Made by a program: the position numbers and the translations under genes | Assembly (NCBI RefSeq): GCF_022654015.1 | Contig: NZ_CP073063.1 | Coordinates: 1,116,001 to 1,180,000 of the forward strand | DNA length: 64,000 nucleotides | Reading direction: 5' to 3' | Origin: Brevundimonas diminuta | Lineage (GTDB): Bacteria; Pseudomonadota; Alphaproteobacteria; Caulobacterales; Caulobacteraceae | Notes under the pieces: generated by a model | Database searches by the model: none | Seen by the model: only the letters and a program-made list of their open reading frames with translations | What the model was told of the DNA's origin: nothing | Part shown: positions 4,815-24,467 of the stretch, piece after piece | Layout: each line of letters opens with the position of its first letter | Numbering within the stretch: the first letter of the stretch is position 1

Positions 4815-4853
4815 GCGGGCGTGGCGAAACTGGTAGACGCAGCAGACTTAAAA
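4815..4853 (+). pseudogene. tRNA-Leu(UAA), 5' half, cut in the anticodon loop by integration
   Basis: GCGGGCG acceptor strand, D arm (GCG...GGTAGACGC), 5' anticodon stem GCAGA (4842-4846) and the full 7-base loop CTTAAAA (4847-4853) with anticodon TAA. The expected TCTGC stem strand does not follow; element sequence (CCCACTACC) begins instead. The missing 3' half is found intact at 54585-54639, and joining the two restores a perfect tRNA with CCA. As it stands this half cannot fold into a tRNA. It is presumably still transcribed from the host tRNA promoter, toward the integrase gene. Confidence 0.93.
4845..4853 (+). repeat. Left attachment core (attL)
   Basis: The 9-bp direct repeat GACTTAAAA is the only sequence shared by the two junctions of the element (4845-4853 and 54583-54591). 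It covers the last two bases of the 5' anticodon stem and the whole anticodon loop of tRNA-Leu(UAA). Flanks differ on both sides (CA|core|CCC at left, TGC|core|TCT at right). Confidence 0.88.
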
Positions 4854-4905
4854 CCCACTACCGTAGATTTACGTATCTAAATCAATCGGTTAGAGCGGGT
4901 AGACA

Positions 4906-4924
4906 CTTACACACGACTTACACA
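4906..4924 (+). repeat. Left paired CTTACACA sites, candidate integrase arm sites
   Basis: CTTACACA occurs at 4906-4913 and 4917-4924, 11 bases apart, in the same orientation. The same octamer is paired again near the right end (54505 and 54517). Paired direct repeats near both ends of an element are typical of arm-type binding sites for tyrosine integrases. The second copy, with flanks, reads GACTTACACA, close to the core GACTTAAAA. Confidence 0.6.
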
Positions 4925-4950
4925 TTTGCCGCGAGCGGCAAGGAGGTCAT

Positions 4951-6246
4951 GTGTCGGAGTCTCACTCGCTCATGGAGGGCAAGCTCCACGTCTATCGTCG
5001 CGAGAACAGCCCATACTGGCAGTGCGCGACCTATCTGAGCGGCCGCAACTACCGTCAGTCGACGAAGGAGACGAACGTCGCCATCGCGCGCGAGTTTGCG
5101 CGCGATTGGTATCTCGATCGGCTCGCTGAAGATCGTCTCCGCAAGTCCGGGAAGCTCCCGTCGATGCCGGAGATGCCTGTCGTCGTCCCGGAGCGTGTGA
5201 CGCCGAAGCGGCCGGGAGAGAAGATCTTCCGTGAGGCGGCCGCCGTCTTCGAAAAGGAGTTCGAAGCGATGACGTTGGGTGAGCGGAATGCTCACTACGT
5301 CGCTGGGAAGGGGCGGGTGATCCGTCTCTACCTCAACCCGTTCTTCGGCGATTTGCCGATCACCGAAGTCTCCGCCGGCCGGATCCAGGATTACCGGCTT
5401 CACCGCGTCACGCCACCTGACGAGCCGCAGCGTGTGCGGTTCGTCTCGGAGGGGCAAGAACGGATCGGAAAAGCGAAGATCTGGAAACGGCCGAGCCGGC
5501 AGACGCTCCATAACGAGATGGTCTGTCTTCGGCAGATCCTGAAAACGGCGAACCGGAAAGGGTGGATTTCCGCCCTTCCGGACATGAGCAACCCGTACCG
5601 GGCATCCGGCAAGGTGAGCCACAGGGCTTGGTTCTCACCTGAAGAGTACAAGCGCCTCTACGAAGCGACGCGCGAGCGCGCGAAGAACCCGAAAAAGGAG
5701 CGCTGGCGCGAGGAGTGCGAGCAGTTCCACGACTTCGTGCTGTTCATGGTCAACACCGGGCTGCGTCCCGACGAGGCGCAGCGCCTCGAGTTCAGAGACG
5801 TCTCGATCGTTGAGGATGAGGCGACCGGCGAGCGCATCCTCGAGATCGAGGTGCGGGGCAAGCGTGGGGTAGGGTACTGCAAGAGCATGCCCGGCGCCGT
5901 CCGTCCGTTCGAACGGGTGCTCAAGCGCAAGAACGGCCAGCCGACCGATCTCGTCTTCGGTCTGGTGCAGCGCGAACTGTTGAACGCCATCTTGGACGAA
6001 CTCGGTCTGAAGAAGGACCGGGATGGAAGGCCTCGTACCGCCTACAGCCTGCGGCACACCTACATCTCCATGAGGCTCATGGAGGGCGCCGACATTTATC
6101 AGGTCGCCAAGAACTGCCGGACCAGCGTGGAGATGATCGAGAAATACTACGCCTCTCACATCAAGAACGTGCTCGACGCCTCGGCCATCAATGTCCGAAA
6201 GCCCAAGCCGGCGAAGCGAAAAACAGTGGATGCGAATGGTGCCTGA
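4951..6246 (+). CDS. int: Tyrosine recombinase / integrase of the element
   Basis: 431 residues; site-specific recombinase expected to integrate and excise the element at GACTTAAAA. An N-terminal SAM-like core-binding region spans about 90-200. The catalytic domain (about 220-415) has the first Arg in NTGLRPDEAQ, the Lys in VRGKRG, the YSLRHTY box (Tyr for the usual first His) and the nucleophile region SVEMIEKYY. Start GTG 4951 follows AAGGAGG (4940-4946) by four bases; an ATG at 4949 is in another frame, and Met8 (4972) is an alternative. It lies just inside attL and reads away from the tRNA half, so the tRNA promoter may drive it. Confidence 0.93.
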   Translation: MSESHSLMEGKLHVYRRENSPYWQCATYLSGRNYRQSTKETNVAIAREFARDWYLDRLAEDRLRKSGKLPSMPEMPVVVPERVTPKRPGEKIFREAAAVFEKEFEAMTLGERNAHYVAGKGRVIRLYLNPFFGDLPITEVSAGRIQDYRLHRVTPPDEPQRVRFVSEGQERIGKAKIWKRPSRQTLHNEMVCLRQILKTANRKGWISALPDMSNPYRASGKVSHRAWFSPEEYKRLYEATRERAKNPKKERWREECEQFHDFVLFMVNTGLRPDEAQRLEFRDVSIVEDEATGERILEIEVRGKRGVGYCKSMPGAVRPFERVLKRKNGQPTDLVFGLVQRELLNAILDELGLKKDRDGRPRTAYSLRHTYISMRLMEGADIYQVAKNCRTSVEMIEKYYASHIKNVLDASAINVRKPKPAKRKTVDANGA

Positions 6247-6274
6247 TCGCGGCGATCAGCCAGCGAACTTGATT

Positions 6275-6331
6275 ATTTCAGTGAAATGGTCTATTTCAAC
6301 GTAATGATGAAAATGGAACTTTCAGTGAAAG
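6275..6331 (+). promoter_or_regulatory. Two palindromes at the start of the abiE pair, candidate autoregulatory operator
   Basis: ATTTCAGTGAAAT (6275-6287) and CTTTCAGTGAAAG (6319-6331) share the inverted repeat TTTCAGTGAAA, with centres 44 bases apart. AbiEi antitoxins are known to repress their own operon through two inverted repeats. The second copy falls inside the reading frame if translation starts at 6286, 6304 or 6313, which makes a later start (GTG 6325) conceivable. Confidence 0.5.
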
Positions 6332-7380
6332 AGGCTGAACGCGCTCTCGCCGGGGAGCTGCGGGACGTACTCGCCGTCGTCCCGACCGTAGAGGTTCGGT
6401 CTATCGATATCGAGGGACCGGGCGACGCCCCGCGCGTCGATATCATCGCCGATGTCTCGATCGCTTCCAGAAGCTTCACGATATTGATGGAGGTGAAGAG
6501 TTCCGGACAGCCGCGGGTGATCCGGAGCGCCGTCGATCAGGCGCTTCAAGCTGCCGCTAACCTCGGAATGAAGTCCATCGTGCTCGTGGGGGCCCCCTAT
6601 ATGGCGGATGCCGCCCGGCGCCTGTGTGACGAGGCCGGCGTCGGCTGGCTCGATCTCGCGGGCAACGTCCGCATCGTCGGCCCGGGCCTCTATATCGACC
6701 GGCAGACGGCCGAGAAGCCCAAGGCAGTCGCGCGCGAGCTGAAGTCGCCGTTCGCACCGAAATCAGCGCGCGTTCTCCGTTGTCTCCTTCAGACGCCCGG
6801 TCGGGCCTGGAAGGTGACGGACCTCGCCGAAGCCGCGCAAGTGAGCTTGGGCCAAGTCAGCAACGTGCGGCGCGCGCTGATCGACCGTGAATGGGCCTCT
6901 GCCGATTCCGAGGGCCTGCAACTGACCGATCGCGAAGGTCTCCTGCGCGGCTGGCGGGAGGCCTATGAGGCGCCCGTTGGGGAGCGGCGGCGCTACTATA
7001 CGACCCTGCACGGGAAACGGCTGGATGTGGCCCTGCGAGACGCCCTGCGTGAGGCTCAGTCCTCAGGCCGGGCCGCGGCGATGTCCTTCACGGCCGCCGA
7101 TTGGTGGGCGCCTTACGCACGCGTGCCGATGACCTACCTCATCGCCGAACCCAGCGCCCTGCCGGCCTTGGTCGATCATCTGGAGCTCAAGCCCGCCGAA
7201 AGCGGGGCCAATGTCGAGATCCTGATCCCCGACGAGGCCGAGCTGTTCGACGATCTGCGTCAGCCGGCTCCAGACCTCTGGACGACCAGCCCGCTGCAGA
7301 CCTTCCTTGATCTCGGGACCGGCGGCGAACGCGGGCAGGAGGCGGCAGACCATCTGCTCGCCAGCGTGTCCCTGTGGTGA
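6286..7380 (+). CDS. abiEi: AbiEi-family antitoxin / winged-helix protein
   Basis: 364 residues from the first ATG; other in-frame starts are 6304, 6307, 6313 and GTG 6325. The N-terminal part (about 45-130) has a nuclease-like pattern with an Asp in RVDIIAD and an EVK (FTILMEVKSS) resembling a PD-(D/E)XK fold. A winged helix follows (about 160-215, VTDLAEAAQVSLGQVSNVRRAL). The C-terminal part has no motif I recognise. It overlaps the abiEii toxin gene, the standard antitoxin-toxin order of type IV AbiE systems, which abort phage infection. The large size fits the longer AbiEi subfamily rather than the roughly 200-residue form. Confidence 0.8.
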   Translation: MVYFNVMMKMELSVKEAERALAGELRDVLAVVPTVEVRSIDIEGPGDAPRVDIIADVSIASRSFTILMEVKSSGQPRVIRSAVDQALQAAANLGMKSIVLVGAPYMADAARRLCDEAGVGWLDLAGNVRIVGPGLYIDRQTAEKPKAVARELKSPFAPKSARVLRCLLQTPGRAWKVTDLAEAAQVSLGQVSNVRRALIDREWASADSEGLQLTDREGLLRGWREAYEAPVGERRRYYTTLHGKRLDVALRDALREAQSSGRAAAMSFTAADWWAPYARVPMTYLIAEPSALPALVDHLELKPAESGANVEILIPDEAELFDDLRQPAPDLWTTSPLQTFLDLGTGGERGQEAADHLLASVSLW

Positions 7381-8231
7381 AGCCGGAACCGCAGAGCGCG
7401 GCGGACTATCCCGCGCGCAGCACCGCCGCCGTCCGCCAGACCCTCGTCGAGATCGGACAGATCCTCGGCAGCTATGAAGGAAAGTTCGCCGTGGTCGGCG
7501 GCGCTGTGCCGTGGCTGTTGCTCGAGCCGGACGACATGATCCACGTCGGGACGTTCGACATCGATCTCGCACTCGACCCGGTCGCGCTCGCGGATACCGA
7601 ATACGCAGACCTGGTTCACGCGCTTCAGGCTCATGGCTACGAGCGCGGCCCCGAGGATCGGGCATTCCAGCTGACGCGGAAAGTTCCTGCCGAAGATGAC
7701 GGTCCCCCGATCAAGGTTGTCGTCGACTTCCTGATGCCGCGGGACGCGGAGGTGCCGAAGCGGGAGCGGCCGCTCGTGAAGGACTTCGCCGTCCAGAAGG
7801 CGGACGGGGCCGATCTGGCGATCGACTTCCAGGCTTTGGTCGAGATTGAGGACCGGATGCCGGGACGGTCGTGGACCAATCGCGTAAAGATCGCGGTGGC
7901 CTCGATCCCGGCGCTTCTCGGCATGAAAGGCCACGCCCTCGTCGGCCGCTTCAAGCGGAAGGACGCCTACGACATCTACTATTGCGTCCGAAACTACCCG
8001 GGCGGGCCCGAAGCCCTGGCCGACGCCTGCCGGCCCCTCCTGGAACGGGCTAGCGCTCTTCAAGGCTATGAGAAGATCGCCAGCAAGTTCAGGGATGTCG
8101 ATGACCACGGACCTGCCTGCGTTCGCGAGTTCGTAGAGACAAGCGCGGCCTTGGGCGACCGTACTCCGGAGCAGTGGCAGACGGACGCCTATGGGCAGGT
8201 CCGAGCCTTCCTGGATGCGCTCGGGCTCTAG
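7374..8231 (+). CDS. abiEii: AbiEii-family nucleotidyltransferase toxin
   Basis: 285 residues; start GTG 7374 (or GTG 7377), overlapping the abiEi stop at 7378-7380. The nucleotidyltransferase core is visible: the GG of VVGGAVPWLLL (about 40-50), then the metal-binding pair in FDIDLALD (about 62-69), with a later KVVVDFLMP strand. AbiEii toxins transfer nucleotides to tRNA and stop growth until neutralised by AbiEi. The convergent SLATT gene ends at the same spot (4-base overlap). Whether its substrate is tRNA here is family knowledge, not seen; the nearby tRNA gene makes the question relevant. Confidence 0.82.
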   Translation: MVKPEPQSAADYPARSTAAVRQTLVEIGQILGSYEGKFAVVGGAVPWLLLEPDDMIHVGTFDIDLALDPVALADTEYADLVHALQAHGYERGPEDRAFQLTRKVPAEDDGPPIKVVVDFLMPRDAEVPKRERPLVKDFAVQKADGADLAIDFQALVEIEDRMPGRSWTNRVKIAVASIPALLGMKGHALVGRFKRKDAYDIYYCVRNYPGGPEALADACRPLLERASALQGYEKIASKFRDVDDHGPACVREFVETSAALGDRTPEQWQTDAYGQVRAFLDALGL

Positions 8232-8764
8232 CCTCCTGCGAGCGCCAGTTCCTGTGCGGTGTATTCCGCCGATCCGCCCTGGATCGACTTGAACGCCTTC
8301 TTGTGAGCCGCTGACGGGATCGGCAGCGACTCGGACTGCAAGGCCCCGATCTTCTCCGTCAGCTCGGACAGGCGCGACCGGAGCGCCGTAACGTCCATCA
8401 TGCCGACGTCGATCTGGACGAACTGGCGCAGAGCGCGCCGGAGGACGCCGTAGGAGACGCCGCTGCGGTGATGTTGCGACGCCCGTTCGGAAGGGTTGAG
8501 AAAGGTCATCAGGGCTGTGATGGCAGCGCCGACAAGCGCGAGCGAACCGCCGATGGCAGGGTCCATATTCGCCAGAATGGTGGCGCCGGCGGTAGCGCCG
8601 ATGAGCGCTGCGGGAATGCCGAGCGAGTAAGTGCGACCGCGCCAGTCGCTGGCGGCCTCGAAATGACCCTTCTCCGAATAGAGCGCGTCCACGGCCAGTC
8701 GCCGGGCTTCCGCCAGAATGGCGTCGCGAGGGTCGCTTTCGATCGGGCTGACGGTATCGGTCAT
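8228..8764 (-). CDS. SLATT-domain membrane protein, CBASS effector
   Basis: 178 residues from ATG 8764, which overlaps the CD-NTase stop by four bases (ATGA). Two adjacent membrane helices (about 45-62 and 68-84; GIPAALIGATAGATILA and SLALVGAAITALMTFL) are followed by a helical cytoplasmic tail, the layout of SLATT proteins. In CBASS such two-helix proteins are thought to form pores when activated by a cyclic nucleotide. Pairing with the CD-NTase in one short operon supports the effector role. No Cap2/Cap3 genes are present, so this would be a minimal type I system. Confidence 0.78.
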   Translation of the reverse strand: MTDTVSPIESDPRDAILAEARRLAVDALYSEKGHFEAASDWRGRTYSLGIPAALIGATAGATILANMDPAIGGSLALVGAAITALMTFLNPSERASQHHRSGVSYGVLRRALRQFVQIDVGMMDVTALRSRLSELTEKIGALQSESLPIPSAAHKKAFKSIQGGSAEYTAQELALAGG

Positions 8765-9687
8765 GACAAAGGTCCAATCGCGGAGCCGAACAGCGACCGC
8801 CATTCCGCGCTCGCCCTGCGGTCGGCGTTTACCGCCTCATAGTGACAGGCGCGCTGGGCGGTCGCCAAGGCCGTTCGCGCTCGTGAGGCCCAGGCGTCGC
8901 CGATCGACACCCACTCGCCGGTTCCAGGCATCTGGACCGACCCGCCGACATACCGGAGCATGAACTCGAAGAAGTCGCGGACCATCCAGTCCTCATAGCC
9001 TGCGGTCGCGTGCTGCCAGGTTTCGAGGAAGGCCACGGCCAGGCGCTCGAGCATGAACGACTTGATCGGCGCATGGGCATGACGCTGCCACTGCTTGGCC
9101 ATCCGGATCAGGCGGCGCGTGGCGCCGAAGGTTGCGCGATCCGACGCTTCAAGCACCGAGAGCTCAGCCCACGGATCGGTGGTGCGGTACGAACCGCCGC
9201 CATTCGCATCGGCGATCAGATATTGACCGGTGTCGAGGCGGAAGGCCGGGATGACCTCGACGGGCATGGTCGCGAAGGGCACGACAACGACCTGGCCATC
9301 TCCACGGATCGCCGTTTGAGGGTAGGTCTGCGAGAGCGCCGAGCGAACTTCCTGGAGCAGTTGGGACTGGCGGTTGCCGGCGCGGGCCTCGTAGCGATGG
9401 AAGATATCGACAGGCATGCAGAACAGGACGTCGATGTCGCGCGGTGGGGCCACCCTCAGCGTCTTCGCCCAGGACCCGATCAACAGGCTGTTCTGCGTCG
9501 CCTCGCCATGGCCGTAGTACCAGCGGTTCAGGGCTGCCCGAACGCCCATCTGCTTGCGTGTACCGTCGACCGCCTGTTGCTCGGTGATCCCGAGCCTCTG
9601 CATGAAGGCCGAGAAGCGCTGCCCAACGAACATCCACCTGGGCGGGGGCACTGGCGGCGCGGGCGACAGCGGAACGAGGAAGCTCAA
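8761..9687 (-). CDS. SMODS-type CD-NTase (cyclic oligonucleotide synthase)
   Basis: 308 residues. The nucleotidyltransferase signature GSWAK (about residue 71) is followed by the metal pair in PPRDIDVLF, and a third acidic residue lies in PVEVIPAF, in the order known for CD-NTases of CBASS. A helical C-terminal domain follows. The enzyme would sense infection and make a cyclic nucleotide that opens the SLATT effector encoded directly downstream. Start ATG 9687; Met19 is an alternative. ATATCGCCGATAT at 9721-9733, just upstream, is a small inverted repeat that could be part of its promoter. Confidence 0.82.
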   Translation of the reverse strand: MSFLVPLSPAPPVPPPRWMFVGQRFSAFMQRLGITEQQAVDGTRKQMGVRAALNRWYYGHGEATQNSLLIGSWAKTLRVAPPRDIDVLFCMPVDIFHRYEARAGNRQSQLLQEVRSALSQTYPQTAIRGDGQVVVVPFATMPVEVIPAFRLDTGQYLIADANGGGSYRTTDPWAELSVLEASDRATFGATRRLIRMAKQWQRHAHAPIKSFMLERLAVAFLETWQHATAGYEDWMVRDFFEFMLRYVGGSVQMPGTGEWVSIGDAWASRARTALATAQRACHYEAVNADRRASAEWRSLFGSAIGPLS

Positions 9688-9833
9688 GGGTGGACCTGGG
9701 AACGGCGGCGAAGCGTCGGCATATCGCCGATATAGGGAGCGCTTGCGCCTATGCGAGAGCAGCGCGCGCTTTGGGGGTAATCGCGCCCGGAGACAGGTCG
9801 CCGCGTCCCGGTGGTTGAAGAATGCCCGCCGCC

Positions 9834-9863
9834 TTGGCGCGCGGGCACGAACACAGGTATAGA
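9834..9863 (+). promoter_or_regulatory. Probable promoter of the intron-bearing tRNA gene
   Basis: TTGGCG (9834-9839) and TATAGA (9858-9863) are separated by 18 bases, and transcription would begin about 7 bases before the mature tRNA 5' end at 9877. A GC hairpin (GCCCGC 9824-9829 with GCGGGC 9841-9846) overlaps the -35 box and may be the end of an upstream transcript. Confidence 0.45.
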
Positions 9864-9876
9864 GCCCGCTCGGCTG

Positions 9877-10184
9877 GCGGGCGTGGCGAAACTGGTAGAC
9901 GCAACGGACTTAAGCTGAGGATTGAGTGCGCCGGGGGAAATCCCGGACGTAGAACCGCTCAAAGTCGGGGAACCCTGTCAGATGGCGATCCCGAGCCAAG
10001 CCCGTCTCCGGACGGGAAGGTGTAGAGACTAGACGGGCGGCGTCTAAGGCCTTCGGGCTATGACGAAGGGATAGTCCAGACCACGAACGTCGGGCCTTCC
10101 GGGGCAGGCGGCGGCGAAAGTCGAAGTGGTACGAAAATCCGTCGGGCATTGCCCATGCCGGTTCGACCCCGGCCGCCCGCACCA
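9877..10184 (+). tRNA. tRNA-Leu(UAA) with a group I intron, carried by the element
   Basis: The 5' exon is 9877-9911 and the 3' exon 10134-10184 (86 nt spliced, CCA encoded). Acceptor GCGGGCG pairs fully with CGCCCGC (10174-10180). The T arm is GCCGG-TTCGACC-CCGGC and the long variable arm GGGC-ATT-GCCC. The anticodon stem ACGGA/TCCGT closes the loop CTTAAAA once the 222-nt intron is removed; the splice site is after U34 of the anticodon. It differs from the host copy in the anticodon stem, variable arm and T loop, so it is not a local duplicate. It is the only unbroken source of tRNA-Leu(UAA), the reader of UUA codons, in this window. Confidence 0.95.
9912..10133 (+). ncRNA. Group I intron (IC3-like) in the tRNA-Leu anticodon loop
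   Basis: 222 nt with no open reading frame of its own. It starts AAGCTGAGG after the exon U; the GAG of this segment can pair with exon CUU, leaving the U-G pair needed at the 5' splice site. It ends in G (10133). The conserved core is easy to read: GAGCCAAGCCCG, then the P7 5' strand in AGAGACTAGACGGG (10024-10037), and its partner GGGATAGTCCAG near 10068-10079. These blocks resemble the cyanobacterial tRNA-Leu(UAA) intron, inserted at the same position. Self-splicing is expected from the family, not shown here. Confidence 0.92.
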
Positions 10185-10205
10185 CCGAAACTCGAGGATC
10201 CCGCT

Positions 10206-10988
10206 TCAGCCGGCCTCGGCGGCGGGAGCGGCTCTCGCCTGGAGGTCGGCCAGGATGTGCTCGGCGACCTCGATCACGGTCGCGAAGTCACAGATCATTT
10301 GCCCGTGGAAACGAACAGGTCGCGCGCCTTCGCCGAAGGAATGCATCATTACCGGCTCGAAAACGCCGAGCCGCCGTTGGGCGGCGATGATCTCGGGCCA
10401 GCGGGCCCAGTCCCACCCTGGGCCGCCGACCTGCGCTTCCAGCCTTGCGAACTCCGCCGCGGCCGCGTCGTCGAGTTGTTTGGGCGGGATGTAGAGCGGA
10501 ATCCTGTGGGCTAGGGCGTGGCGATACTCTTCCAGATAGCCAAACCACTGATCCGTGCCTACCAGATAGGCTTGGCTTCGCGCCGACAGGCTGCCTCTGA
10601 GGTCCGCGTTGTCGGGCGTCAGACCGATCCGGCTGCGGTGAAGGGGACGTCCATTAGGGCCGCGCACGTCGGCTTCCAGACACCAGAGCCAGGCCAGGTT
10701 GTCCATGGCTCCGAAGATGTTGATGACGAAGGCCTGAAGGAAGGCCGTGGCGTCCCCGATCGCTTCGCGGCTCGGCTCGGCCTCCTGCGGCGGCAGCGTC
10801 TCGAAGACCCGACGAAGTCCATGCTTCAGGTCGGAAAGGCGGCGGCAGACGCCGTGGGTCATCATTTCTCTGGCCTGCGGAACCTGAAGCTGGAGACGGA
10901 ACAGTGAGCTGGTCAGGGCGCCCTCCCGCTCTAACCAGTCATCACAGCGGTCCTGCATCTCGGCGACGTCGTCATCGGAATAGGCCAT
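10206..10988 (-). CDS. HEPN-like hypothetical protein
   Basis: 260 residues, mostly helical. RHALAH at residues 156-161 matches the RX4-6H signature of HEPN ribonucleases, and the preceding FGAMDNLAWLW helix resembles that in HEPN proteins of defence islands. No signal peptide or membrane helix. It stands alone, 21 bases after the intron tRNA gene on the opposite strand. A HEPN RNase acting in defence or as a toxin is a plausible guess; a non-catalytic HEPN fold is equally possible. I see no partner antitoxin next to it. Confidence 0.6.
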   Translation of the reverse strand: MAYSDDDVAEMQDRCDDWLEREGALTSSLFRLQLQVPQAREMMTHGVCRRLSDLKHGLRRVFETLPPQEAEPSREAIGDATAFLQAFVINIFGAMDNLAWLWCLEADVRGPNGRPLHRSRIGLTPDNADLRGSLSARSQAYLVGTDQWFGYLEEYRHALAHRIPLYIPPKQLDDAAAAEFARLEAQVGGPGWDWARWPEIIAAQRRLGVFEPVMMHSFGEGARPVRFHGQMICDFATVIEVAEHILADLQARAAPAAEAG

Positions 10989-11092
10989 GGAGCCATTCTA
11001 ATGACGGAACCCGTTGAGCCCCTAGCGCGGAGTTGGGGACACATACCCAGCGTAATGGAAGGCTCGAGCCGACTCTCACTAGAGCAGCGGTC

Positions 11093-11368
11093 ATGACCCA
11101 CGATGAGCTTGACCGCACTCTCGACCGTATGTTCTCAGCGGCGGCGTCACCCGATGATCAGCCGGGTGTCGTCACTGTTCAAACGGACGAATGGTTGGGA
11201 GTCCTGTCCACGGCACGGGCGACCTGCGCGTCCCTTCAGGACGGCCTGCGCTATCGGGAAATCCAGGTTCTGGTCTCGTCGCAGTTCGAGACCCGGGTGC
11301 TGTCACGGACCGAGGCCGGGGGGGCGCGGCGAACCTTATCGCGAATTGCGCGACCGGACCGCAGATGA
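11093..11368 (+). CDS. Hypothetical protein (91 aa)
   Basis: Start ATG 11093 (MTHDELDRTLDRMFSAA). The first 60 residues look like a plausible acidic, helical protein; the end is Arg-rich (ARRTLSRIARPDRR) and could be out of frame, so the gene may be truncated or frameshifted. Two overlapping frames in the same span have worse composition. I do not recognise the family. Confidence 0.4.
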   Translation: MTHDELDRTLDRMFSAAASPDDQPGVVTVQTDEWLGVLSTARATCASLQDGLRYREIQVLVSSQFETRVLSRTEAGGARRTLSRIARPDRR

Positions 11369-11383
11369 CCTACGCGCTCCGGC

Positions 11384-11668
11384 CTAGTGGATGGAGACGG
11401 GCGGCCCCTCTGACGGGCAACCGGTCATGACCAGGCTTGCGACCATTGCGTCGATCTCAACCAGAAGCTCGGTAAGATCCTGACCGTCGAACCGCGTCCG
11501 GGCCGCCTCGCGCCACGCGCTCCGCAGTACATCGCGGGCGTCCTCTGGCGCGAGATCCTCAGGATAGATTAGGCCCCGTTCAGCCAATAGCCTCCGTGCG
11601 ACGACGCCGGCCTGTTCGGCGAGATCGCTGTAGATCTCCGTCTCCTCGGCGGTCAGCTCTTCGGCCAT
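11384..11668 (-). CDS. Hypothetical acidic helical protein (94 aa)
   Basis: Starts MAEELTAEETEIYSDLAEQ and is rich in Glu, Asp, Ala and Arg in regular helices, with normal codon-position composition. No motif, signal peptide or membrane segment. It is transcribed away from the 104-bp repeat at 11699-11802, which begins 30 bases upstream of its start and could hold its promoter. Function unknown. Confidence 0.55.
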   Translation of the reverse strand: MAEELTAEETEIYSDLAEQAGVVARRLLAERGLIYPEDLAPEDARDVLRSAWREAARTRFDGQDLTELLVEIDAMVASLVMTGCPSEGPPVSIH

Positions 11669-11698
11669 GGCGATCCTGGTGGGACAAGAATGGGGGAC

Positions 11699-11802
11699 GG
11701 GCCTGGAACTTCTGCGAAGAAGCCCGGGGTTTCAGGACCGGCCGCCGCCGACGTCAGGGACGTCCCCCGGCTCAAGGTCGGTCCCTATCGTTCCGGAACC
11801 CG
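11699..11802. repeat. 104-bp imperfect direct repeat, copy A
   Basis: Matches copy B at 22811-22914 over its whole length with one compensating gap each way, about three quarters identical by eye. Fully conserved blocks include GGGCCTGGAACTTCTG at the left end, CGCCGCCGACG in the middle and TTCCGGAACCCG at the right end. Both copies lie between a minus-strand gene start and a plus-strand gene start. No reading frame is conserved between them. Confidence 0.8.
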
Positions 11803-11989
11803 TCATCGGTCAGCCTACAGGCTCGCAGCCCCGACGCAATCAACGCAGGTCGCCGCGAAGGACGCATCGCGAGAATCGGTTCGATGCGATAGGCGGGACC
11901 GCCGGACCGCGACCGACCTTGCGCCCGGCAGCGGTCCCGCGCCGACCCGCCGTCGGCCGGGCCGCACCCTTCACTGCGAGGCCTCCGCC

Positions 11990-12889
11990 ATGAAATCCCT
12001 GATCGCGCTTTCGCTCTCGGCCGCTCTGCTGTCCGGATGCGTCGGGTGGATGCCGGCGCGCGACGCCGACGGGCTCAAGATCGCCAGCTGGAACATGGAG
12101 CATCTCGCGGAGCGGGACGGGGAGGGCTGCAGTCCGCGCTCCGAGGCCGACTACGCGCGGCTGCGGGCCCATGTCGCGGCGCTCCGCGCCGATGTGATCG
12201 CCTTCCAGGAGGTGCAGAACAAGGCTGCGGCCGAACGCGTGTTCGATCCGGCCATCTATGACGTCGTCATGTCCGGTCGTCCTCCCAGCACCCGCAGCGG
12301 TGAATGCCGGGGGAGCCCCGGCCTCTTCATCCAGAATCAGGCCGTCGGGTTCGCCATCAGGAAGGGCGTGCCCTGGACCCGGAACGCTGACCTGAGCGCC
12401 CTGGCGTTGGGCAATCCCGACCTGCGGTGGGGCGTCGACGTGACGGTGTCCCAGGGAAGGCCGATGCGGCTTCTGGCGGTGCACCTAAAGTCCGGGTGCA
12501 ATTCGGGGCGCGAGCTGACCGACCCCGACTGCCCGGTCCTGTTCGACCAACTCCCCGTACTGGAAGACTGGACGGAGGCGCGGGCCCGCGAAGGCCAGGC
12601 CTTCGTGGTGCTGGGCGACTGGAATCGCCGCCTCGCCAGCCGCGACGACGCCTTCTTGGCGGACCTCAACGACGGCGACCCGGCCGGCTCGACCCTGATT
12701 CTCACGTCCGGCGGTCAGGCGGCCGGCTGCAAGGCGCGCTATCGGGAGTTCATCGACTTCATCGCGACGGGAGACGCGGCGACCGCGCGTATCGAACCGG
12801 GGTCATTCGAGGAATATCGCTACGGCGGGATCCCCGAGGCCGAGCATCCCTCGGATCACTGCCCGATCTCGGTACGGATCGCCGGCTAG
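11990..12889 (+). CDS. Endonuclease/exonuclease/phosphatase-family lipoprotein
   Basis: 299 residues. Start ATG 11990 gives a lipoprotein signal with lipobox LLSGC (Cys at about 17). The EEP fold is marked by SWNMEHL (about 35, first Asn), AFQEVQN (metal Glu, about 72), the GDWNRR Asp-Trp-Asn motif (about 210), and SDHCPISV at the end with the catalytic Asp-His. The family hydrolyses phosphodiester bonds in nucleic acids, lipids or other substrates; here it would be anchored outside the cytoplasm. An open frame extends upstream to 11690, but that part overlaps the repeat and is not coding. Confidence 0.85.
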   Translation: MKSLIALSLSAALLSGCVGWMPARDADGLKIASWNMEHLAERDGEGCSPRSEADYARLRAHVAALRADVIAFQEVQNKAAAERVFDPAIYDVVMSGRPPSTRSGECRGSPGLFIQNQAVGFAIRKGVPWTRNADLSALALGNPDLRWGVDVTVSQGRPMRLLAVHLKSGCNSGRELTDPDCPVLFDQLPVLEDWTEARAREGQAFVVLGDWNRRLASRDDAFLADLNDGDPAGSTLILTSGGQAAGCKARYREFIDFIATGDAATARIEPGSFEEYRYGGIPEAEHPSDHCPISVRIAG

Positions 12890-12913
12890 GTCCGTTCCGA
12901 GCGAAGCGCGCGG

Positions 12914-13387
12914 CTACCGGCTCTGTGCGAGGTCGAAGATCCGTCGGGCGGCCTCATAGTCGATCGCGTGGAACCCGTGCGGCGTCGCCGTCACGAAGCG
13001 CCGAATTTCCTCAGGGGCGAAGGAAAAGGTCGAGGGGAGGGCCAGCTTCCTCTTGGCCGTTCCATCCGCGCTGTTGCACTGCTCGCAGATGACGGTGTCG
13101 GGGAACCGGCTGGATCGACCGTCGGGCGGCACCCGCCCGTATCGGATCACATCGAGATTATGATCATGATGCCGGTGATAGCCGCCGGCCCAGCCCCAGA
13201 ACCGGGTCGGGAGCTTGGGAAAACGCAGGGTCCATCGCAGGATCTCGAACTTGCTGCGAGCGCAGCCGGGGCAGCGCCAGTCCTCGGACAGACTCTGATA
13301 GCCGGTCTCGCGATGGACCCAGTCCGGCCAGATGTGCTCGCGGGTGAAAGGCCCCGAGCCGTCACAGTAAGGGCACAGCTTTTTCAT
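12914..13387 (-). CDS. HNH-type zinc-binding nuclease-like protein
   Basis: 157 residues. The N terminus has CPYC then FTREHIWP, the His-containing HNH start, and ICEQCNSADG at about 100 supplies the second CxxC and the Asn. A further CPGC pair lies near residue 40. This arrangement is that of HNH endonucleases found in mobile elements and restriction or anti-phage loci. The expected last His may be in HGFHAIDYE. The gene is convergent with the EEP lipoprotein gene and 112 bases beyond the imuB frame. Whether it is active is unknown. Confidence 0.7.
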   Translation of the reverse strand: MKKLCPYCDGSGPFTREHIWPDWVHRETGYQSLSEDWRCPGCARSKFEILRWTLRFPKLPTRFWGWAGGYHRHHDHNLDVIRYGRVPPDGRSSRFPDTVICEQCNSADGTAKRKLALPSTFSFAPEEIRRFVTATPHGFHAIDYEAARRIFDLAQSR

Positions 13388-13499
13388 CGCGCGACGCCCG
13401 CGTCGAGATGGAGGGCGGGGGTGAAGGGCGTCAGGATCATGGCCCTTTCATCGCCTGATCGAGGACGGTGGTCGAGCGCGCGCTTGAGGCGGGCGGCGC

Positions 13500-15020
13500 T
13501 CAGCCGAAGCGGCCGTGAATGAACCAGGCCTGCGACCCGGTTGAGGCGTCCTCGCCGTCGCCGGCGCGGAAGAGCCAGAAGCGTTCACCGGCGTCGTCCT
13601 CGACCTGGAAGTAATCTCGTACAGCCCACATCTCGGCGTCGCGGCGTCCCCATTCGCCGAAGATCCGTTCCGGGCCGTCGGCCCGGCGGATCCGGCGGCG
13701 GACGCCGCGCCAGGTAAAGTGGGTCGGCGGATTGTCGGGAAGCAACGCCATGGTCTCTATCGGCTCGGGCCTGCGGAACAGGCGAGCCGGGCGCGGCCAG
13801 TCCGCTGTCCACGCCAGCCCCGTCGGCGCGGCCAGCGGCGCGACCTTCCGGGTCGATCGCTCGGGGACGTCGCTCTCGACCGGCGCCAGTCGATACAGTC
13901 GGTCGGCTCCGATCCGGTTAGCCAAGGTATCCACGAGCAGGGAGACGTCCGGCTCCGCCTCCGCGCCGAGGTGCGCGGCGGCCGGACGCCAGTTCAGCGG
14001 TTCGGCCGCGCGCGCCGCGAGCGTCATCCGTTCGATGCCGAACCCCGGCTCGATGGTCTCGATCTTGTCGGTCAGCAATCGGGTCAACCGGCGAATGTCC
14101 CGCACCGGCTGGGCGAGGCCGACGCGAACGGCCTCGATCCGGTTGTCGACCCGATAGCAGAGCTAGTCGAGGCGCCGCGCGCCGAGGCCGCGCGTTTCCA
14201 GAAGACCGCACAGGGTCTCGACGAGCACCCCTGCATAGCGGGCGATGGTCTCCGGCGCGCCGATCGGCTCGGCGAAGACCCGTTCGACGCGGGGCGTCTC
14301 GGGCGCCTCGACCGGGATCAGTGGCTCGGTCGACCGGCCATAGGCCTGATCGAGCCGTCGCCCCAGTTCCGCGCCGAAACGCAGCTGGAGCGGCGCGCGC
14401 GGTCGGTGGGCGATGTCGCCGATCCGTTCGAACCCCATGCGCCGAAGGTCGGCCGGCAGGGCCGCCGGGAGGCGCAGGGCTTCCAGCGGCAGGGAAGACA
14501 GGGTTGCATCGACCCCATTGTCGTCAATGATCTGCACCTCGGTCCGGAACCGGGCGGCTGCATGGGCGGCGCCGTAGGTCGGCGCGACCACGCCTCGGCC
14601 GGTCACGCCGACCCGTTGAAGCCGCGCCGTCAAATCGCGCAACAGCGCCGCTTCGCCCCCCTTCAGGTGGGCGGCCCCGGTGATGTCGATCGCCAGTCCG
14701 TCCGGCGGATCGGCCTGGCAGACGGGGGCGTAGCGGTGCATCGCCCAAAGGGCGAGACGATCCAGGGCGTCGGCGTCTCCGACCGGATCGGCGTCCCTGA
14801 CGTCGAGGTCAGGAATGAGAGCCTGGGCCTGGGTCGCGGCCATGCCGACGCGCGCGCCGCATGCGGCGGCGGTGCTGTTGCAGGCCGTGACGACCCGCCT
14901 GCGGCCGAGCCGGCCGGTCAGGACAAGGGCGCGGTCAGGCGGCGGCGCGTCGGCGCCCAACAGCCGGCGCAACCGCTCTACGGGCCAGTTCGGCAGGAAG
15001 AGCGAGACGACCCGTCTCAT
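13500..15020 (-). pseudogene. imuB: imuB, Y-family polymerase-like protein, interrupted by an in-frame amber stop
   Basis: The frame from ATG 15020 reads 285 residues of ImuB (LFLPNWPVERLRR start, then VTACNSTAAACGARVGM, then AIDITGAAHL) to a TAG at 14163-14165. The same frame continues without shift (LCYRVDNRIEAVRVG) for 220 more codons to the TGA at 13500-13502, and the continuation is the normal ImuB C-terminal part. One base change explains the stop. ImuB bridges ImuA, the beta clamp and DnaE2 in SOS mutagenesis; no dnaE2 lies beside it here. It overlaps imuA by 86 bases, as in intact operons. The truncated 285-residue protein could still be made. Confidence 0.88.
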
Positions 15021-15693
15021 CGCAAGCGTCCAGAATGAAGTCCGCCGCGTCGGCGCCGCGGCAACGCATGAGTTCGATCCGCCACCGCGCTCGCCCGATG
15101 CCCGGGACCGGCAGGGGCGCCGACGGCTCGGCGCTGACGCGCCAGCGCGTCGCGGCGGCGGTCGGCTGGCCGAAGTCGGCCGCTTCGGCGGCCCGTCGCC
15201 ATCGCCGAACCGCCAGGCCGATGACGCCCGACGTCTCGGCCGCGAGCTGGAGCCGGCGTGAGGCGGTCATGGTCAGGCGCGACGTTTCGCAAACGACCCC
15301 GGCCAAGCCGCCATGGCGAAGGCCCTCCTCGAAACAGGCCATCAGGGCCTTTTCGTCGCCGGCCTCGACATAGATGACCCGATCCGGCCCCAGCCCGGCG
15401 TGACTGAGGGCCGGAGCGAACAGGTCCGGCCGCGTGACGCACCAGAGCACGGAGCCCGGCAGGCGGGCGACGACGCCCGCCGCGAACAGCGCGGCGGCGG
15501 CGCCCCCCACGGCGTCGTCGCCGCCGCCCGCCACTTCGTGAAGCGCTCCCAGGGCGAGACCGCCGCCGGGGAGAGCGGCGTCCAGAGCCTCCACCTCGAA
15601 CGGAAGCACGCCCACCGATTTACGGACAGCCTGCTCCAGTGCGCGCACCTGGGCGCGCAGATCCTCGAGATGGGCCGAACCGGCGGCCGGCAT
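14935..15693 (-). CDS. imuA: ImuA, RecA-like mutasome protein
   Basis: 252 residues, start ATG 15693. The ImuA signature GGGLALGALHEV (about 43-54) stands where RecA has its Walker A region, followed by a RecA-like core (SVLWCVTRPDLFAPAL and VIYVEAGDEKALMACFEEG). In Caulobacter imuA, imuB and dnaE2 form a LexA-controlled mutagenesis operon. A perfect LexA box (15721-15735) stands 28 bases upstream. The C terminus overlaps imuB. Because imuB is broken and dnaE2 absent locally, the product may act with chromosomal partners or be useless. Confidence 0.88.
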   Translation of the reverse strand: MPAAGSAHLEDLRAQVRALEQAVRKSVGVLPFEVEALDAALPGGGLALGALHEVAGGGDDAVGGAAAALFAAGVVARLPGSVLWCVTRPDLFAPALSHAGLGPDRVIYVEAGDEKALMACFEEGLRHGGLAGVVCETSRLTMTASRRLQLAAETSGVIGLAVRRWRRAAEAADFGQPTAAATRWRVSAEPSAPLPVPGIGRARWRIELMRCRGADAADFILDACDETGRLALPAELARRAVAPAVGRRRAAA

Positions 15694-15720
15694 GGACGAA
15701 CTCCTCCTGGCGTCTATAAT

Positions 15721-15735
15721 GTTCCTGAAATGTTC
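15721..15735. promoter_or_regulatory. LexA (SOS) box between imuA and the SRAP gene
   Basis: GTTC-CTGAAAT-GTTC, a perfect match to the alphaproteobacterial LexA operator GTTC-N7-GTTC. It lies 28 bases before the imuA start on the minus strand and 110 bases before the SRAP gene on the plus strand, so it can control both. A TATAAT on the plus strand (15715-15720) abuts it and could be the -10 element of the SRAP promoter. Confidence 0.85.
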
Positions 15736-15844
15736 TGGTTCGAAGCCGGCGTCGGAGTCAATCCGGTCGTCGCCTTATCCCCTTCGATTTGCGGCGACGC
15801 CGGAGCCGTGAAATCCTCGGCCATAGGTCAAAGGAGGTCGCGCG

Positions 15845-16423
15845 ATGTGCAATGAATACCAGCTCATTCTGCCGTTCGACGACATCATCGAGGCGTTCGA
15901 CCTGAGCGGAAACCGGCTGGTGTTTCCGGGCGGCATGCCGAATTTCGGACCTATGGCCTCCATTCGCATCGGCGATCGGGCGCCCATCATTCAGATGGGG
16001 TCGGAAGGGCCGGAAGCGGTGATGACGCCCTGGGCATGGAAGGGGCCGGGCGGACGACCGGTCTTCAACTTCCGATCGGACGGGCGGTCGTTTGAAGGGT
16101 CACACCGGTGCCTGATCCCGGCGGACGGCATTTTCGAGTTCACCGACCCGGAACCGGGCCAGAAGCGAAAGACCAAATGGCGCTTCACCCTGTCCGACCA
16201 GCGGCTCTTCTGGGTGGCGGGCCTGATCAAGGACGGCGCTTTCGCCATGCTGACCACCGAGCCGGGGGCGGACATCGCCCCCTATCATGACCGGCAGATC
16301 GTGCTCCTGCGCCCCGAGGACGGTGCGGCCTGGCTCAATCTTCAGAAGCCCGAGGCCGAGCTGTTGCGGGCTCTGCCCGCCGGGAGCCTTGACGTCGAAA
16401 AGGTCTTCCCGATCGCGGCCTGA
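15845..16423 (+). CDS. SOS response-associated peptidase (SRAP/YedK family)
   Basis: 192 residues beginning M-C-N-E-Y: Cys2 is the residue that crosslinks covalently to abasic sites in single-stranded DNA in YedK/HMCES proteins. The Asn in FNFRSD (about 77), the Glu in IPADGIFEF and a late His (PYHDRQIVLL) match the other active-site positions. It shields abasic sites at stalled forks. The ribosome site AAAGGAGG precedes ATG 15845. It is divergent from imuA across a LexA box, so SOS induction of both is likely. ICE of this lineage often carry an SRAP gene. Confidence 0.92.
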   Translation: MCNEYQLILPFDDIIEAFDLSGNRLVFPGGMPNFGPMASIRIGDRAPIIQMGSEGPEAVMTPWAWKGPGGRPVFNFRSDGRSFEGSHRCLIPADGIFEFTDPEPGQKRKTKWRFTLSDQRLFWVAGLIKDGAFAMLTTEPGADIAPYHDRQIVLLRPEDGAAWLNLQKPEAELLRALPAGSLDVEKVFPIAA

Positions 16424-16511
16424 GCCACCGGACTGCGAGCGGGTCTCGAGCACCGTGAGGCGTCGACTGCGGTGGGGGATCCCGAGGCGCCCCCTGTCTC
16501 GCATCTTTCTC

Positions 16512-16571
16512 GCGCCAGCCGGCGCGGCCTCTCGATGAGGCGGATCTGACCGAAACCCGGTCGGCTGGCGC
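16512..16571. repeat. 10-bp inverted repeat with 40-bp spacer in the gap before the DUF736 gene
   Basis: GCGCCAGCCG (16512-16521) and CGGCTGGCGC (16562-16571) are perfect complements. They lie in the 335-bp intergenic stretch 16424-16758, which otherwise shows only GC-rich low-complexity sequence and no credible gene. The site could be a regulatory hairpin or part of a transfer origin; the relaxase gene is 3 kb away, so this is only a candidate. Confidence 0.4.
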
Positions 16572-16758
16572 AACCGCTCACGCGACTTTCATCCCCGGCC
16601 TGACGGCCTTCCTCGCGAAACAAGAAAGTCTCTTGCCACGGTCCTCCGCTTCGCTGCGGGGGCCTCGCTTCGCTCTCCCTGCGCGCCGCCCGCGCCCCGG
16701 TCTGCCGATCGCCATCGAGGCCGCGGCAGGCGTGGCCCGAAGCAAAGGAGAGACTGAC

Positions 16759-17052
16759 ATGGCCACCATCGGCACCTTCACCTCCCAGGGCGACGGCTAC
16801 ACCGGTTCGATCAAGACCCTCACCCTCAACGTCAAGTCGGCGGTCCTGCGGCCCAACGAGAAGAGCGACGACAAGGCCCCCGACTTCCGGATCTTCGCCG
16901 GCCAGACCGAGTTCGGCGCCGCCTGGAAGAAGACGAGCCAGCAGAACCGCGAGTACCTCTCGGTCAAGCTCGACGATCCCAGCTTCCCGGCGCCGATCTA
17001 CGCCTCCCTGGTGGAGGTCGAGGGCGGACACAGCCTGATCTGGTCCCGCTGA
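16759..17052 (+). CDS. DUF736 family protein
   Basis: 97 residues, start ATG 16759 after AAAGGAG. Starts [18 protein letters not shown], the family signature, and continues with the [16 protein letters not shown] segment. DUF736 genes are markers of alphaproteobacterial ICE and plasmids and typically stand near antirestriction and transfer genes, as here (ArdC follows after 73 bases). The biochemical role is unknown; it is small, soluble and probably expressed early in transfer, which is inference from context. Confidence 0.92.
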
Positions 17053-17125
17053 CCCAAGAGCCGCGGCGGCGCGGGGAACGCGCCGCCGCTCCTTCTTCCC
17101 GCAATCCATTTTCGAGGAGGCCGCC

Positions 17126-18013
17126 ATGACGCGCCCCACCGATCCCGCACGCCTGGACGTCTACACCCGGATCACCCAACAGATCCTCGCCCAGCTCGAA
17201 GCCGGGGTCCGCCCCTGGACCCAGCCCTGGAAGAGCGCCACTTCGGTCAGCCGCCCCCTTCGCCATGACGGCACGCCCTACAACGGCATCAACATCGTCC
17301 TGCTGTGGGGCGAAGCGACCGGCCGGGGATTTACCCGATCGACCTGGATGACCTTCCGCCAGGCGCTGGCGCTCGGCGCCCACGTCCGCAAAGGCGAGCG
17401 CGGGGCGACGGTGGTTTACGCAAACCAGATCGTGCGCGAGGACATTGACGAGATCGGCGAAGGCGTCGAACAGCGAATCCCGTTCCTCAAGGCCTACACG
17501 GTCTTCAACGTCGATCAGATCGACGGCCTGCCGGATCGCTACGGCGAGCCCGAAGTCCAGGGCATCAATGCCGACGAACGGATCGCGCGTGTCGACGCCT
17601 TCTTCCGGAACTGCGGCGCGGACATCCGTCACGGCGGCGGGAGCGCCTATTACGCCCCGGGGCCGGACCATGTGCAGATGCCGCCGTTCGAATGCTTCGA
17701 GGATGCCGACGCCTATTACGGTACCCTCGGCCATGAGATGACGCACTGGACGCGTCACCCCACCCGCCTCGATCGGGACTTCGGCCGCCAGCGTTTCGGC
17801 GATCCCGGCTACGCTCGCGAAGAACTGGTCGCCGAACTCGGAGCCGCCTTCCTCTGCGCGGATCTCGGTCTCGCCCTCGAGCCGCGCGAGGATCATGCGG
17901 CCTATGTCGGTCACTGGCTCCAGGTGCTCAAGGACGACAAGCGGTTCATCGTCTCGGCGGCGGCTCACGCGCAGAAGGCCGTCGATCACCTGCATCGCCT
18001 CCAGCCAGTTTGA
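17126..18013 (+). CDS. ardC: ArdC-family antirestriction protein
   Basis: 295 residues. The N-terminal ssDNA-binding domain (about 8-125) has the family pattern VRPWTQPW and YNGINIVLLW. The C-terminal zincin-like domain has LGHEMTHWTRH (HEXXH, about 205-215) with a downstream Glu in REELVAELGAAF. ArdC proteins protect incoming single-stranded element DNA from restriction. Start ATG 17126 follows GAGGAGG. It forms a plus-strand pair with the DUF736 gene. Confidence 0.92.
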   Translation: MTRPTDPARLDVYTRITQQILAQLEAGVRPWTQPWKSATSVSRPLRHDGTPYNGINIVLLWGEATGRGFTRSTWMTFRQALALGAHVRKGERGATVVYANQIVREDIDEIGEGVEQRIPFLKAYTVFNVDQIDGLPDRYGEPEVQGINADERIARVDAFFRNCGADIRHGGGSAYYAPGPDHVQMPPFECFEDADAYYGTLGHEMTHWTRHPTRLDRDFGRQRFGDPGYAREELVAELGAAFLCADLGLALEPREDHAAYVGHWLQVLKDDKRFIVSAAAHAQKAVDHLHRLQPV

Positions 18014-18062
18014 ACTGGCGCCCGCGTCCTGTCCGGGGCAGCCTCGGTGAGGACGCGGGATC

Positions 18063-19034: not shown

Positions 19035-19038
19035 GCCG

Positions 19039-21223: not shown

Positions 21224-21251
21224 GGGGGACTCCAGCGCAGCGCGGGGAAGT

Positions 21252-22774: not shown

Positions 22775-22810
22775 CGACCCAGACGACGAATAAGGGCGAG
22801 AAAAGGGGGC

Positions 22811-22914
22811 GGGCCTGGAACTTCTGTACGGAAGCCGGGTGTTTCAGCGCTGATCGCCGCCGACGCCTTCGCGTCCCCTGGCTCTCGATCAACGCCTATC
22901 CGTTCCGGAACCCG
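22811..22914. repeat. 104-bp imperfect direct repeat, copy B
   Basis: Partner of 11699-11802, same orientation and length. It starts 36 bases before the 5' end of the truncated coupling-protein frame and ends 125 bases before the plus-strand gene at 23040. The terminal blocks GGGCCTGGAACTTCTG and TTCCGGAACCCG are identical in both copies, the interior diverges, which suggests either a conserved regulatory site or an old mobile sequence. Confidence 0.8.
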
Positions 22915-23039
22915 CCGCCATACAGTCTAGGGTCAGCTCCCCGGTCGAGTCGATCCTCTCGCGCGAGCGGCATGCGGTCAGGTCTGGCGGATTGAAGCTG
23001 CTAGACTGTGCGGAGCGATTGCGAGCGACAGGTGACCTG

Positions 23040-24451: not shown

Positions 24452-24467
24452 TCGCGAAATATAGGGC

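What the first reader, a model, noticed from the sequence alone, without database searches (positions are those of the whole stretch)
9877..10184. The element brings a replacement tRNA-Leu(UAA) interrupted by a group I intron at the same anticodon loop
A full tRNA-Leu(UAA) with a 222-nt group I intron (IC3-like core blocks) lies 5 kb inside attL. Its exons differ from the split host gene at several positions, so it was imported. Group I introns at this exact tRNA position are classically cyanobacterial and plastid; finding one as cargo of a proteobacterial element that breaks the same tRNA species is remarkable.
Basis: partly seen in the sequence, partly recalled or inferred. Interest (0 to 1): 0.95.

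Follow-up and report, generated by a model that had tools for sequence, protein, structure and literature searches.

The report
Intron hides tRNA from its integrase
A mobile DNA element has split its bacterial host's tRNA gene for the leucine codon UUA and carries a spare copy interrupted by a predicted self-splicing intron, which likely stops the element's own integrase from splitting the spare as well.

Summary
Confirmed. Window 9877-10184 is a complete tRNA-Leu(UAA) with a 222-nt group I intron between U34 and A35. It is cargo of a 49.7-kb element (4845-54591) that split the host's tRNA-Leu(UAA) in the anticodon loop; GACTTAAAA stands at both ends. No other tRNA-Leu(UAA) was found in the 3.2-Mb genome, so the intron copy would have to be spliced if UUA is to be read.

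It is a recurring design. Relatives of the integrase sit in split tRNA-Leu genes and mostly carry a replacement tRNA downstream. Of 73 that could be classed (110 hits), 33 have a UAA target: 32 replacements have an intron, one a changed loop base. Forty have a CAA target, none with an intron: 31 carry C32 to T in the loop, 8 differ only beside the loop, 1 is unchanged. Native tRNA-Leu(UAA) loops read the same in 150 of 150 listed matches.

Best reading (inferred): the intron breaks the integrase's target in the DNA and leaves the mature tRNA unchanged. Splicing and protection are untested; the CAA exceptions and intron genes without such an integrase speak against a strict rule.

The parts
4845..54591 (.). 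the integrated element, from the first to the last base of the two core copies (49,738 bp core to core)
   Evidence: shared core GACTTAAAA at 4845-4853 and 54583-54591; the rejoined halves are found in 2 of 6 same-genus loci checked, L062 and L074; empty site with both flanking genes in L235
4815..4853 (+). attL: 5' half of the host's split tRNA-Leu(UAA), ending in the core
4951..6246 (+). tyrosine integrase, 431 aa
   Evidence: Pfam Phage_integrase E 3.4e-5, below its cut-off; 384 relatives in genome contigs, 80 kept
6286..8231 (+). AbiEi/AbiEii-like toxin-antitoxin pair, cargo between integrase and tRNA
   Evidence: Pfam AbiEi_2 and AbiEii above cut-offs
8761..9687 (-). SMODS nucleotidyltransferase (CBASS-type), cargo
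   Evidence: Pfam PF18144 E 2.5e-28
9834..9863 (+). predicted promoter of the replacement tRNA: TTGGCG, 18 bases, TATAGA
   Evidence: similar CTTGG ... TATA elements precede many, not all, of the 40 related intron-bearing tRNAs printed
9877..9911 (+). 5' exon of the replacement tRNA-Leu(UAA), ending at U34
9912..10133 (+). group I intron, 222 nt, too short for a homing endonuclease gene
10134..10184 (+). 3' exon of the replacement tRNA, with encoded CCA
54583..54639 (+). attR: core plus 3' half of the host's split tRNA-Leu(UAA)

Best explanation
The element sits in the anticodon loop of the host's tRNA-Leu(UAA) gene, which it has split, and it carries a complete tRNA-Leu(UAA) gene whose 222-nt group I intron is predicted to splice out of the RNA and likely hides this spare gene from the element's own integrase. 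Shown: the split gene, the matching 9-bp cores, the spare gene, and that the intron interrupts the 7-nt loop CTTAAAA that makes up most of the shared core. Inferred: the intron is removed by self-splicing, the mature tRNA replaces the lost one, and an uninterrupted spare would be a second target, so that attL or an incoming copy could recombine with it and delete the integrase or break the last tRNA-Leu(UAA). The intron alters the DNA site while the spliced loop would stay CTTAAAA; native tRNA-Leu(UAA) loops do not vary in the listed samples, so a base change seems hardly tolerated here. Sister elements in tRNA-Leu(CAA), whose natives do vary at base 32, mostly carry a base change instead.
For: Replacement state follows target state: UAA targets 32 intron, 1 C32 to T (L140), 0 intact; CAA targets 31 C32 to T, 5 CACTC, 3 GGCTC, 1 intact (73 of 110 integrase hits could be classed). 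With integrases over 90% alike merged: UAA 21 intron, 1 T; CAA 14 T, 3 CACTC, 1 GGCTC, 1 intact. On the integrase tree the fewest changes are 11 for the target and 9 for intron/no intron; 6 of 6 independent pairs on starred branches agree, sign test p 0.031. Native-type matches for tRNA-Leu(UAA): 58 of 58 listed in the order and 150 of 150 listed in the class read GACTTAAAAT; for CAA 57 GACTC, 3 CACTC, 32 GATTC of 92 listed (by eye, lists cut off). Full-length intron genes were found in 17 of 249 genomes of the order, 9 of them behind a related integrase. Covariation supports the ribozyme fold. No other tRNA-Leu(UAA) found in the genome. Outside this family, phage Gaia carries a tRNA-Leu(CAA) with C32, while its attP-like site and the attP-like sites of two phages with related integrases have T32.
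Against: No RNA or recombination data. In 8 of 40 CAA elements the 7-nt loop is intact and only bases beside it differ; C30, one of these differences, also occurs in attL sites of the family, so its effect is doubtful. One CAA element (L145) carries a spare with the 9-mer intact, 7.5 kb downstream, and a tRNA-Ser(UGA) element (L202) carries an unchanged loop. Five CAA elements show no spare in about 10 kb behind the integrase (L136, L141, L165, L167, L197). Eight of the 17 intron genes in the order have no related integrase within the stretch fetched, one of them at the native locus (L119), so a spare could have been picked up with its intron by chance. T32 in native CAA genes is clustered: 24 of 32 are in one family, and natives of Sphingomonadales, where many CAA elements lie, were not sampled (one search failed). 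The rows are not independent.
Confidence: 0.68

Rival explanations
1. Hitch-hiking: the spare tRNA was captured from a host whose tRNA-Leu(UAA) already had the intron, and the intron is a neutral passenger that would splice out harmlessly.
For: 8 of 17 intron genes in the order have no related integrase in the stretch fetched, L119 sits at the native locus; element and stand-alone introns are interleaved in a poorly resolved intron tree.
Against: Introns are in 32 of 33 UAA spares, but stand-alone ones were found in only 8 of 249 genomes of the order (a lower bound, BLAST with one query); the state tracks the target over several switches, and the one UAA spare without intron has a changed core base instead (L140).
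Confidence: 0.22
2. The intron is itself a mobile element that homes or reverse-splices into exposed tRNA-Leu(UAA) genes and has no link with the integrase.
For: Stand-alone copies exist; L142 has a distant integrase but an intron of the window's clade, so cassette or intron moves between elements.
Against: At 207-281 nt the introns are too short for a homing endonuclease gene; the enrichment in spares is not explained.
Confidence: 0.06
3. The intron-bearing gene is dead, and the cell reads UUA by another tRNA or barely uses it.
For: UUA is rare in this GC-rich genome: 3 in 12 window ORFs counted. The Rfam score is below the gathering threshold.
Against: UUA codons do occur; the ribozyme core shows compensatory changes, and the base facing the splice-site U is G in 30 of 30; a promoter-like pair stands upstream.
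Confidence: 0.04

Closest known systems
tRNA-dependent lysogeny of actinobacteriophages (Guerrero-Bustamante and Hatfull 2024, PMC10865867; outline with abstract, sections 6 and 11, and found passages read)
   Same: A tyrosine integrase splits a host tRNA gene using a short core (about 10 bp; [quoted passage not shown] Gaia has int followed by tRNA-Leu(CAA).
   Different: No intron in the parts read; phages of Actinobacteria, not a relaxase-bearing element; the parts read do not ask why the carried tRNA is not itself a target. The window's integrase has no match in the phage collection at E 1e-5.
Archaeal tRNA introns brought by integrating elements, and introns as protection (Sugahara et al. 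2012, PMC3293823, found passages; Randau and Soll as cited in PMC4390854, found passages)
   Same: The idea that an intron at the attachment site prevents further integration, also to the benefit of the element.
   Different: Archaeal tRNA introns proposed to come in with attP and the rebuilt junction; one natural population. Here it is a group I ribozyme in a separate full gene, with a census against sister elements.
Group I introns in tRNA-Leu(UAA) of cyanobacteria and plastids (PMC4476775, start of abstract in a search listing; IC3 class recalled)
   Same: Same tRNA; the same anticodon-loop site and the small IC3-like core are from recall.
   Different: There a gene of most cyanobacteria and plastids; here cargo of a mobile element in Alphaproteobacteria. 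No cyanobacterial sequence was compared.
Genomic islands in tRNA genes (Islander, PMC4383910, found passages incl. part of the abstract)
   Same: Tyrosine integrase, anticodon-centred attachment site.
   Different: Islands there are found by the tRNA that integration restores; here neither junction holds a whole tRNA.

Membership tests
Group I intron | covariance model match | tested here: met
   RF00028 40.8 bits, E 4.5e-9 on 501 bases; but below the gathering score of 50, and no hit at gathering level over the window
Group I intron | P1 with U.G at the 5' splice site, P3-P8 and P7 core | tested here: met
   hand-drawn helices pair in 98.7% of cells in 30 sequences; P1, P4, the base of P6 and P7 do not vary and so add no covariation. 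Terminal G was part of the pattern used to cut out most introns, so it is no independent test
Group I intron | self-splicing | not testable with these tools
   needs RNA
IC3 subclass of cyanobacterial tRNA-Leu introns | grouping with known IC3 introns | not tested
   no cyanobacterial intron was at hand; the label rests on recall
tRNA-dependent integration (as in tRNA-dependent lysogeny) | short shared core, no tRNA rebuilt at attL or attR | tested here: met
   9-bp core; each junction holds only half a tRNA
[quoted passage not shown]
   9877-10184, anticodon UAA
tRNA-dependent integration (as in tRNA-dependent lysogeny) | host has no other copy | tested here: met
   45 tRNA matches in a 99.99% complete genome; Leu anticodons TAG, CAA, CAG, GAG only; the intron-gene query finds only itself and the attL half
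tRNA-dependent integration (as in tRNA-dependent lysogeny) | carried tRNA required for survival | not testable with these tools
   needs a bench test
Temperate phage | virion genes | tested here: inconclusive
   36 window proteins scanned against Pfam, 33 of them in the element: relaxase, partial T4SS coupling protein, ArdC and metal genes, no virion family; not all ORFs were scanned

The most novel reading that the evidence does not exclude
Bacterial anticodon-loop introns can be target-site immunity devices: a ribozyme that takes an integrase's attachment site out of the DNA without changing the tRNA. Elements whose target loop tolerates no base change carry an intron, those whose loop tolerates one carry a base change, and intron-bearing tRNA-Leu(UAA) genes scattered through bacteria are partly the remains or the sources of such spares.
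Probability: 0.5. Interest if true: 0.9.

Novelty: new variant of a known kind. Interest (0 to 1): 0.8.

Why it matters
Whether introns guard tRNA genes against integrating elements has been proposed for Archaea, where a 2012 paper still found no direct evidence of the link before its own case (PMC3293823, passages). Here one integrase family has switched repeatedly between two target tRNAs, and the form of the spare tRNA switches with it. That gives a natural experiment, a clear prediction for an in vitro integrase assay, and a possible function for a group I intron that is neither neutral nor merely selfish. It also shows that plain tRNA and RNA-family scans can miss the only gene for a codon: saw nothing.

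Tried and rejected
Rfam at gathering level and plain ARAGORN miss the gene. Single-sequence folding energy gives no support (z -0.73). The Rfam mir-935 and RAGATH-28 hits are below gathering scores and were set aside. An intron tree (40 introns, 234 columns, 7 of 34 inner branches starred) is too weak to place the origin. Whether stand-alone introns are old element scars: mixed. L119 lies at the native locus of a same-genus genome; L110, L115, L118 and L123 share neighbouring genes with native loci but at other distances or on the other side; L111 and L117 gave no match and L116 only weak ones (13 native loci). Fionnbharth was looked at as a second phage case and left out, because the host site could not be read. 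The integrase was not folded.

Rows dropped: 110 integrase hits in 104 stretches (L208 left out as the window itself, L108, L109 and L114 as doubles); 73 had a readable attL and a classed spare. Of the other 37, 9 had attL but no spare found: L132, L159, L169 and L205 with 1, 154, 28 and 2115 bases left, and L136, L141, L165, L167, L197 with about 10 kb; 9 had a spare or spare-like tRNA but no readable attL (3 of them with intron); 19 had neither by my patterns, among them L202, whose tRNA-Ser halves I read by eye. L176 and L186 were classed from ARAGORN and L217 from the start of its intron at a locus end. The attL of L180 reads GACTTGAAA. The patterns that cut out 36 introns demanded ACTT before and GAAAATC at the end, so these ends are not independent findings; 4 were missed, 3 of them (L115, L186, L209) and L176 were added from ARAGORN, L118 stayed out. 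Counts were made by eye from 150 listed rows each; both lists were cut off, the pattern sees only genes with GGTAGACGC (161 of 372 genomes), and rows were not checked for element origin (the G377:C9 and G601:C18 rows are split genes).

Full report
What is there. ARAGORN with introns allowed reads tRNA-Leu(taa) at 9877-10184 with a 222-nt intron. Exons are 9877-9911 and 10134-10184, intron 9912-10133. Rfam gives Intron_gpI at 40.8 bits, E 4.5e-9 when 501 bases are searched, under the curated cut-off. To go beyond that, I aligned 30 related introns and laid a hand-drawn group I structure on them: 98.7% of cells are paired (shuffles 91.4), 96 cells are changed on both sides (shuffles 26.5, none of 500 as high), and sliding the partner by one to three columns drops pairing to 26-45%. 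P1 pairs the exon ACUU with GAGU, with U.G at the splice site in 30 of 30. Four helices (P1, P4, the base of P6, P7) never vary and so neither support nor oppose the fold. The names P1 to P9 and the IC3 label are from recall.

The element. Window 4815-4853 is the 5' half of a tRNA-Leu(UAA), 54583-54639 the 3' half; both hold GACTTAAAA, that is the 7-nt anticodon loop CTTAAAA plus two stem bases. Rejoined, they are found as an intact gene in two of six same-genus loci checked, L062 and L074. In L235 the intact gene lies between relatives of the same two flanking genes, a peptidase (92%) and a citrate-transporter-like protein (90%). The element is 49,738 bp core to core. A tyrosine integrase starts 97 bases after the attL core; an AbiE pair, a CBASS-type nucleotidyltransferase, ArdC, relaxase, a partial coupling protein and metal-resistance genes follow, so it is likely an integrative mobilizable element. 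G008 has the same attL and an attR with the same core about 90 kb apart, likely one sister element.

The spare is needed. The genome is one contig of 3.21 Mb. Of 45 tRNA matches the leucine ones have anticodons TAG, CAA, CAG and GAG, and the intron-gene query finds only itself and the attL half. The only tRNA found that can read UUA by the usual rules is the intron-bearing one. In two sister genomes, G008 and G109, the pattern for an uninterrupted Leu(UAA)/(CAA) loop finds one gene each, a CAA. UUA is rare: 3 codons in 12 ORFs counted.

The census. A nine-integrase alignment found 384 relatives in genome contigs, of which 80 loci were returned, 3 in viral contigs, and 14 of 385 genomes of the class at E 1e-60, the window's own included. 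With the window and five loci this gave 110 integrase hits in 104 stretches. Seventy-three could be classed for both the split host gene and the spare. UAA targets: 32 spares with intron, 1 (L140) uninterrupted but with C32 changed to T. CAA targets: 40 spares, none with an intron; 31 have C32 changed to T, 5 read CACTC and 3 GGCTC (loop intact, neighbouring stem bases changed), 1 (L145) is unchanged over the nine bases. With integrases over 90% alike merged the counts are 21 and 1, and 14, 3, 1 and 1. A tRNA-Ser element, L202, carries a spare with an unchanged loop. Five CAA elements show no spare within about 10 kb. Hits beside tRNA-Met follow another plan and were not classed.

Is it one event inherited? 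On the integrase tree the fewest changes are 11 for the target and 9 for intron/no intron; of the pairs that can be drawn on starred branches without sharing any, 6 of 6 go the expected way, sign test p 0.031. The tree is a quick one with 42 of 98 inner branches starred. The intron tree suggests that cassettes move: L142 has a distant integrase but an intron in the window's clade. L176 has a much more divergent group I intron at the same site.

Why an intron for one target and a base change for the other? Matches of native type for tRNA-Leu(UAA) read GACTTAAAAT in 58 of 58 listed cases in the order and in 150 of 150 listed in the class, though the pattern allowed T at position 32. Those for tRNA-Leu(CAA) have T there in 32 of 92, 24 of the 32 in one family; in the window's own family it is 2 of 28. 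So the UAA loop seems fixed by function, and a change of the DNA that would vanish from the RNA is one way left. The extracted exon ends would join to the wild-type loop, but the extraction patterns demanded those ends. This is inference from comparison; that mismatches in the overlap are typically strongly deleterious to tyrosine integrases is stated in PMC10865867, section 11, which also notes that some integrases may tolerate them.

Against it. Introns also occur in tRNA-Leu(UAA) genes with no such integrase in the stretch fetched: 8 of the 17 genomes with a full-length match among 249 searched, one at the native locus. The CAA exceptions above weaken a strict rule. Nothing here measures splicing or recombination.

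An outside check. Mycobacteriophage Gaia is listed as using tRNA-dependent lysogeny with tRNA-Leu(CAA) (PMC10865867, Table 2, passage) and has int followed by that tRNA. Its tRNA reads CTCAAAA, while the attP-like site after int, and the attP-like sites of two phages with related integrases (LittleE, WXIN), read TTCAAAA. So here too the carried tRNA differs from the attachment site inside the loop. The host site itself was not read.

Compared with what is known. The plan is that of tRNA-dependent lysogeny, extended to a likely mobilizable element and with an intron in the carried tRNA. That introns may protect tRNA genes was proposed for Archaea (PMC4390854 citing Randau and Soll; PMC3293823; passages). 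My full-text searches (only the top of some lists was shown) turned up no report of a bacterial element carrying an intron-bearing replacement tRNA; the library lacks most subscription papers. Other papers of which I saw passages: PMC3984707, PMC2647930, PMC9897764, PMC8371274, PMC4383910, PMC6861422. The nearest named relatives of the integrase are Brevundimonas and other Caulobacterales; the host itself is unnamed.

Noticed in passing
window 6286-9687: An AbiE pair and a SMODS/CBASS-type nucleotidyltransferase lie between integrase and spare tRNA; in L127, L128 and L134 the spare follows the integrase directly, so this looks like a cargo slot.
   Followed up: partly
window 24005-53539: Metal cargo: MerR regulator, cation efflux, RND efflux set, E1-E2 ATPase, CopB, CopC, CopD, multicopper oxidase, FTR1.
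   Followed up: no
window 21887-22774: T4SS coupling protein of only 295 aa that matches the C-terminal part of its family, so likely a remnant.
   Followed up: no
L140 10001-12900: The one UAA element without intron: two tandem integrases, then an uninterrupted tRNA-Leu(UAA) with GATTTAAAA.
   Followed up: partly
L112, L113, L140, L165, L215: Loci with two related integrase genes.
   Followed up: no
L214, L215, L218-L220, L222: Relatives of the integrase lie near an intact tRNA-Met(CAT), perhaps a different way of dealing with the target tRNA.
   Followed up: no
L119 near 9993, compared with L226: Intron-bearing tRNA-Leu(UAA) at the native locus of its genus, with about 1.4 kb more DNA downstream than the relative.
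   Followed up: partly
L117 and L123, 0.2-0.4 kb upstream of the intron gene: A further piece of tRNA-Leu (ACTTAAAATCTGTCGGCAAGC...) stands upstream, as if another kind of element had split the gene at a different point.
   Followed up: no
L176 11303-11607: A much more divergent group I intron (Rfam 32.9 bits, E 9.5e-7, below gathering score) at the same site in a Nevskia element, possibly an independent recruitment.
   Followed up: partly
L237 9121-9203 (phage Gaia): Carried tRNA-Leu(CAA) has C32 where the attP-like site has T32, the mirror image of the CAA elements here.
   Followed up: partly
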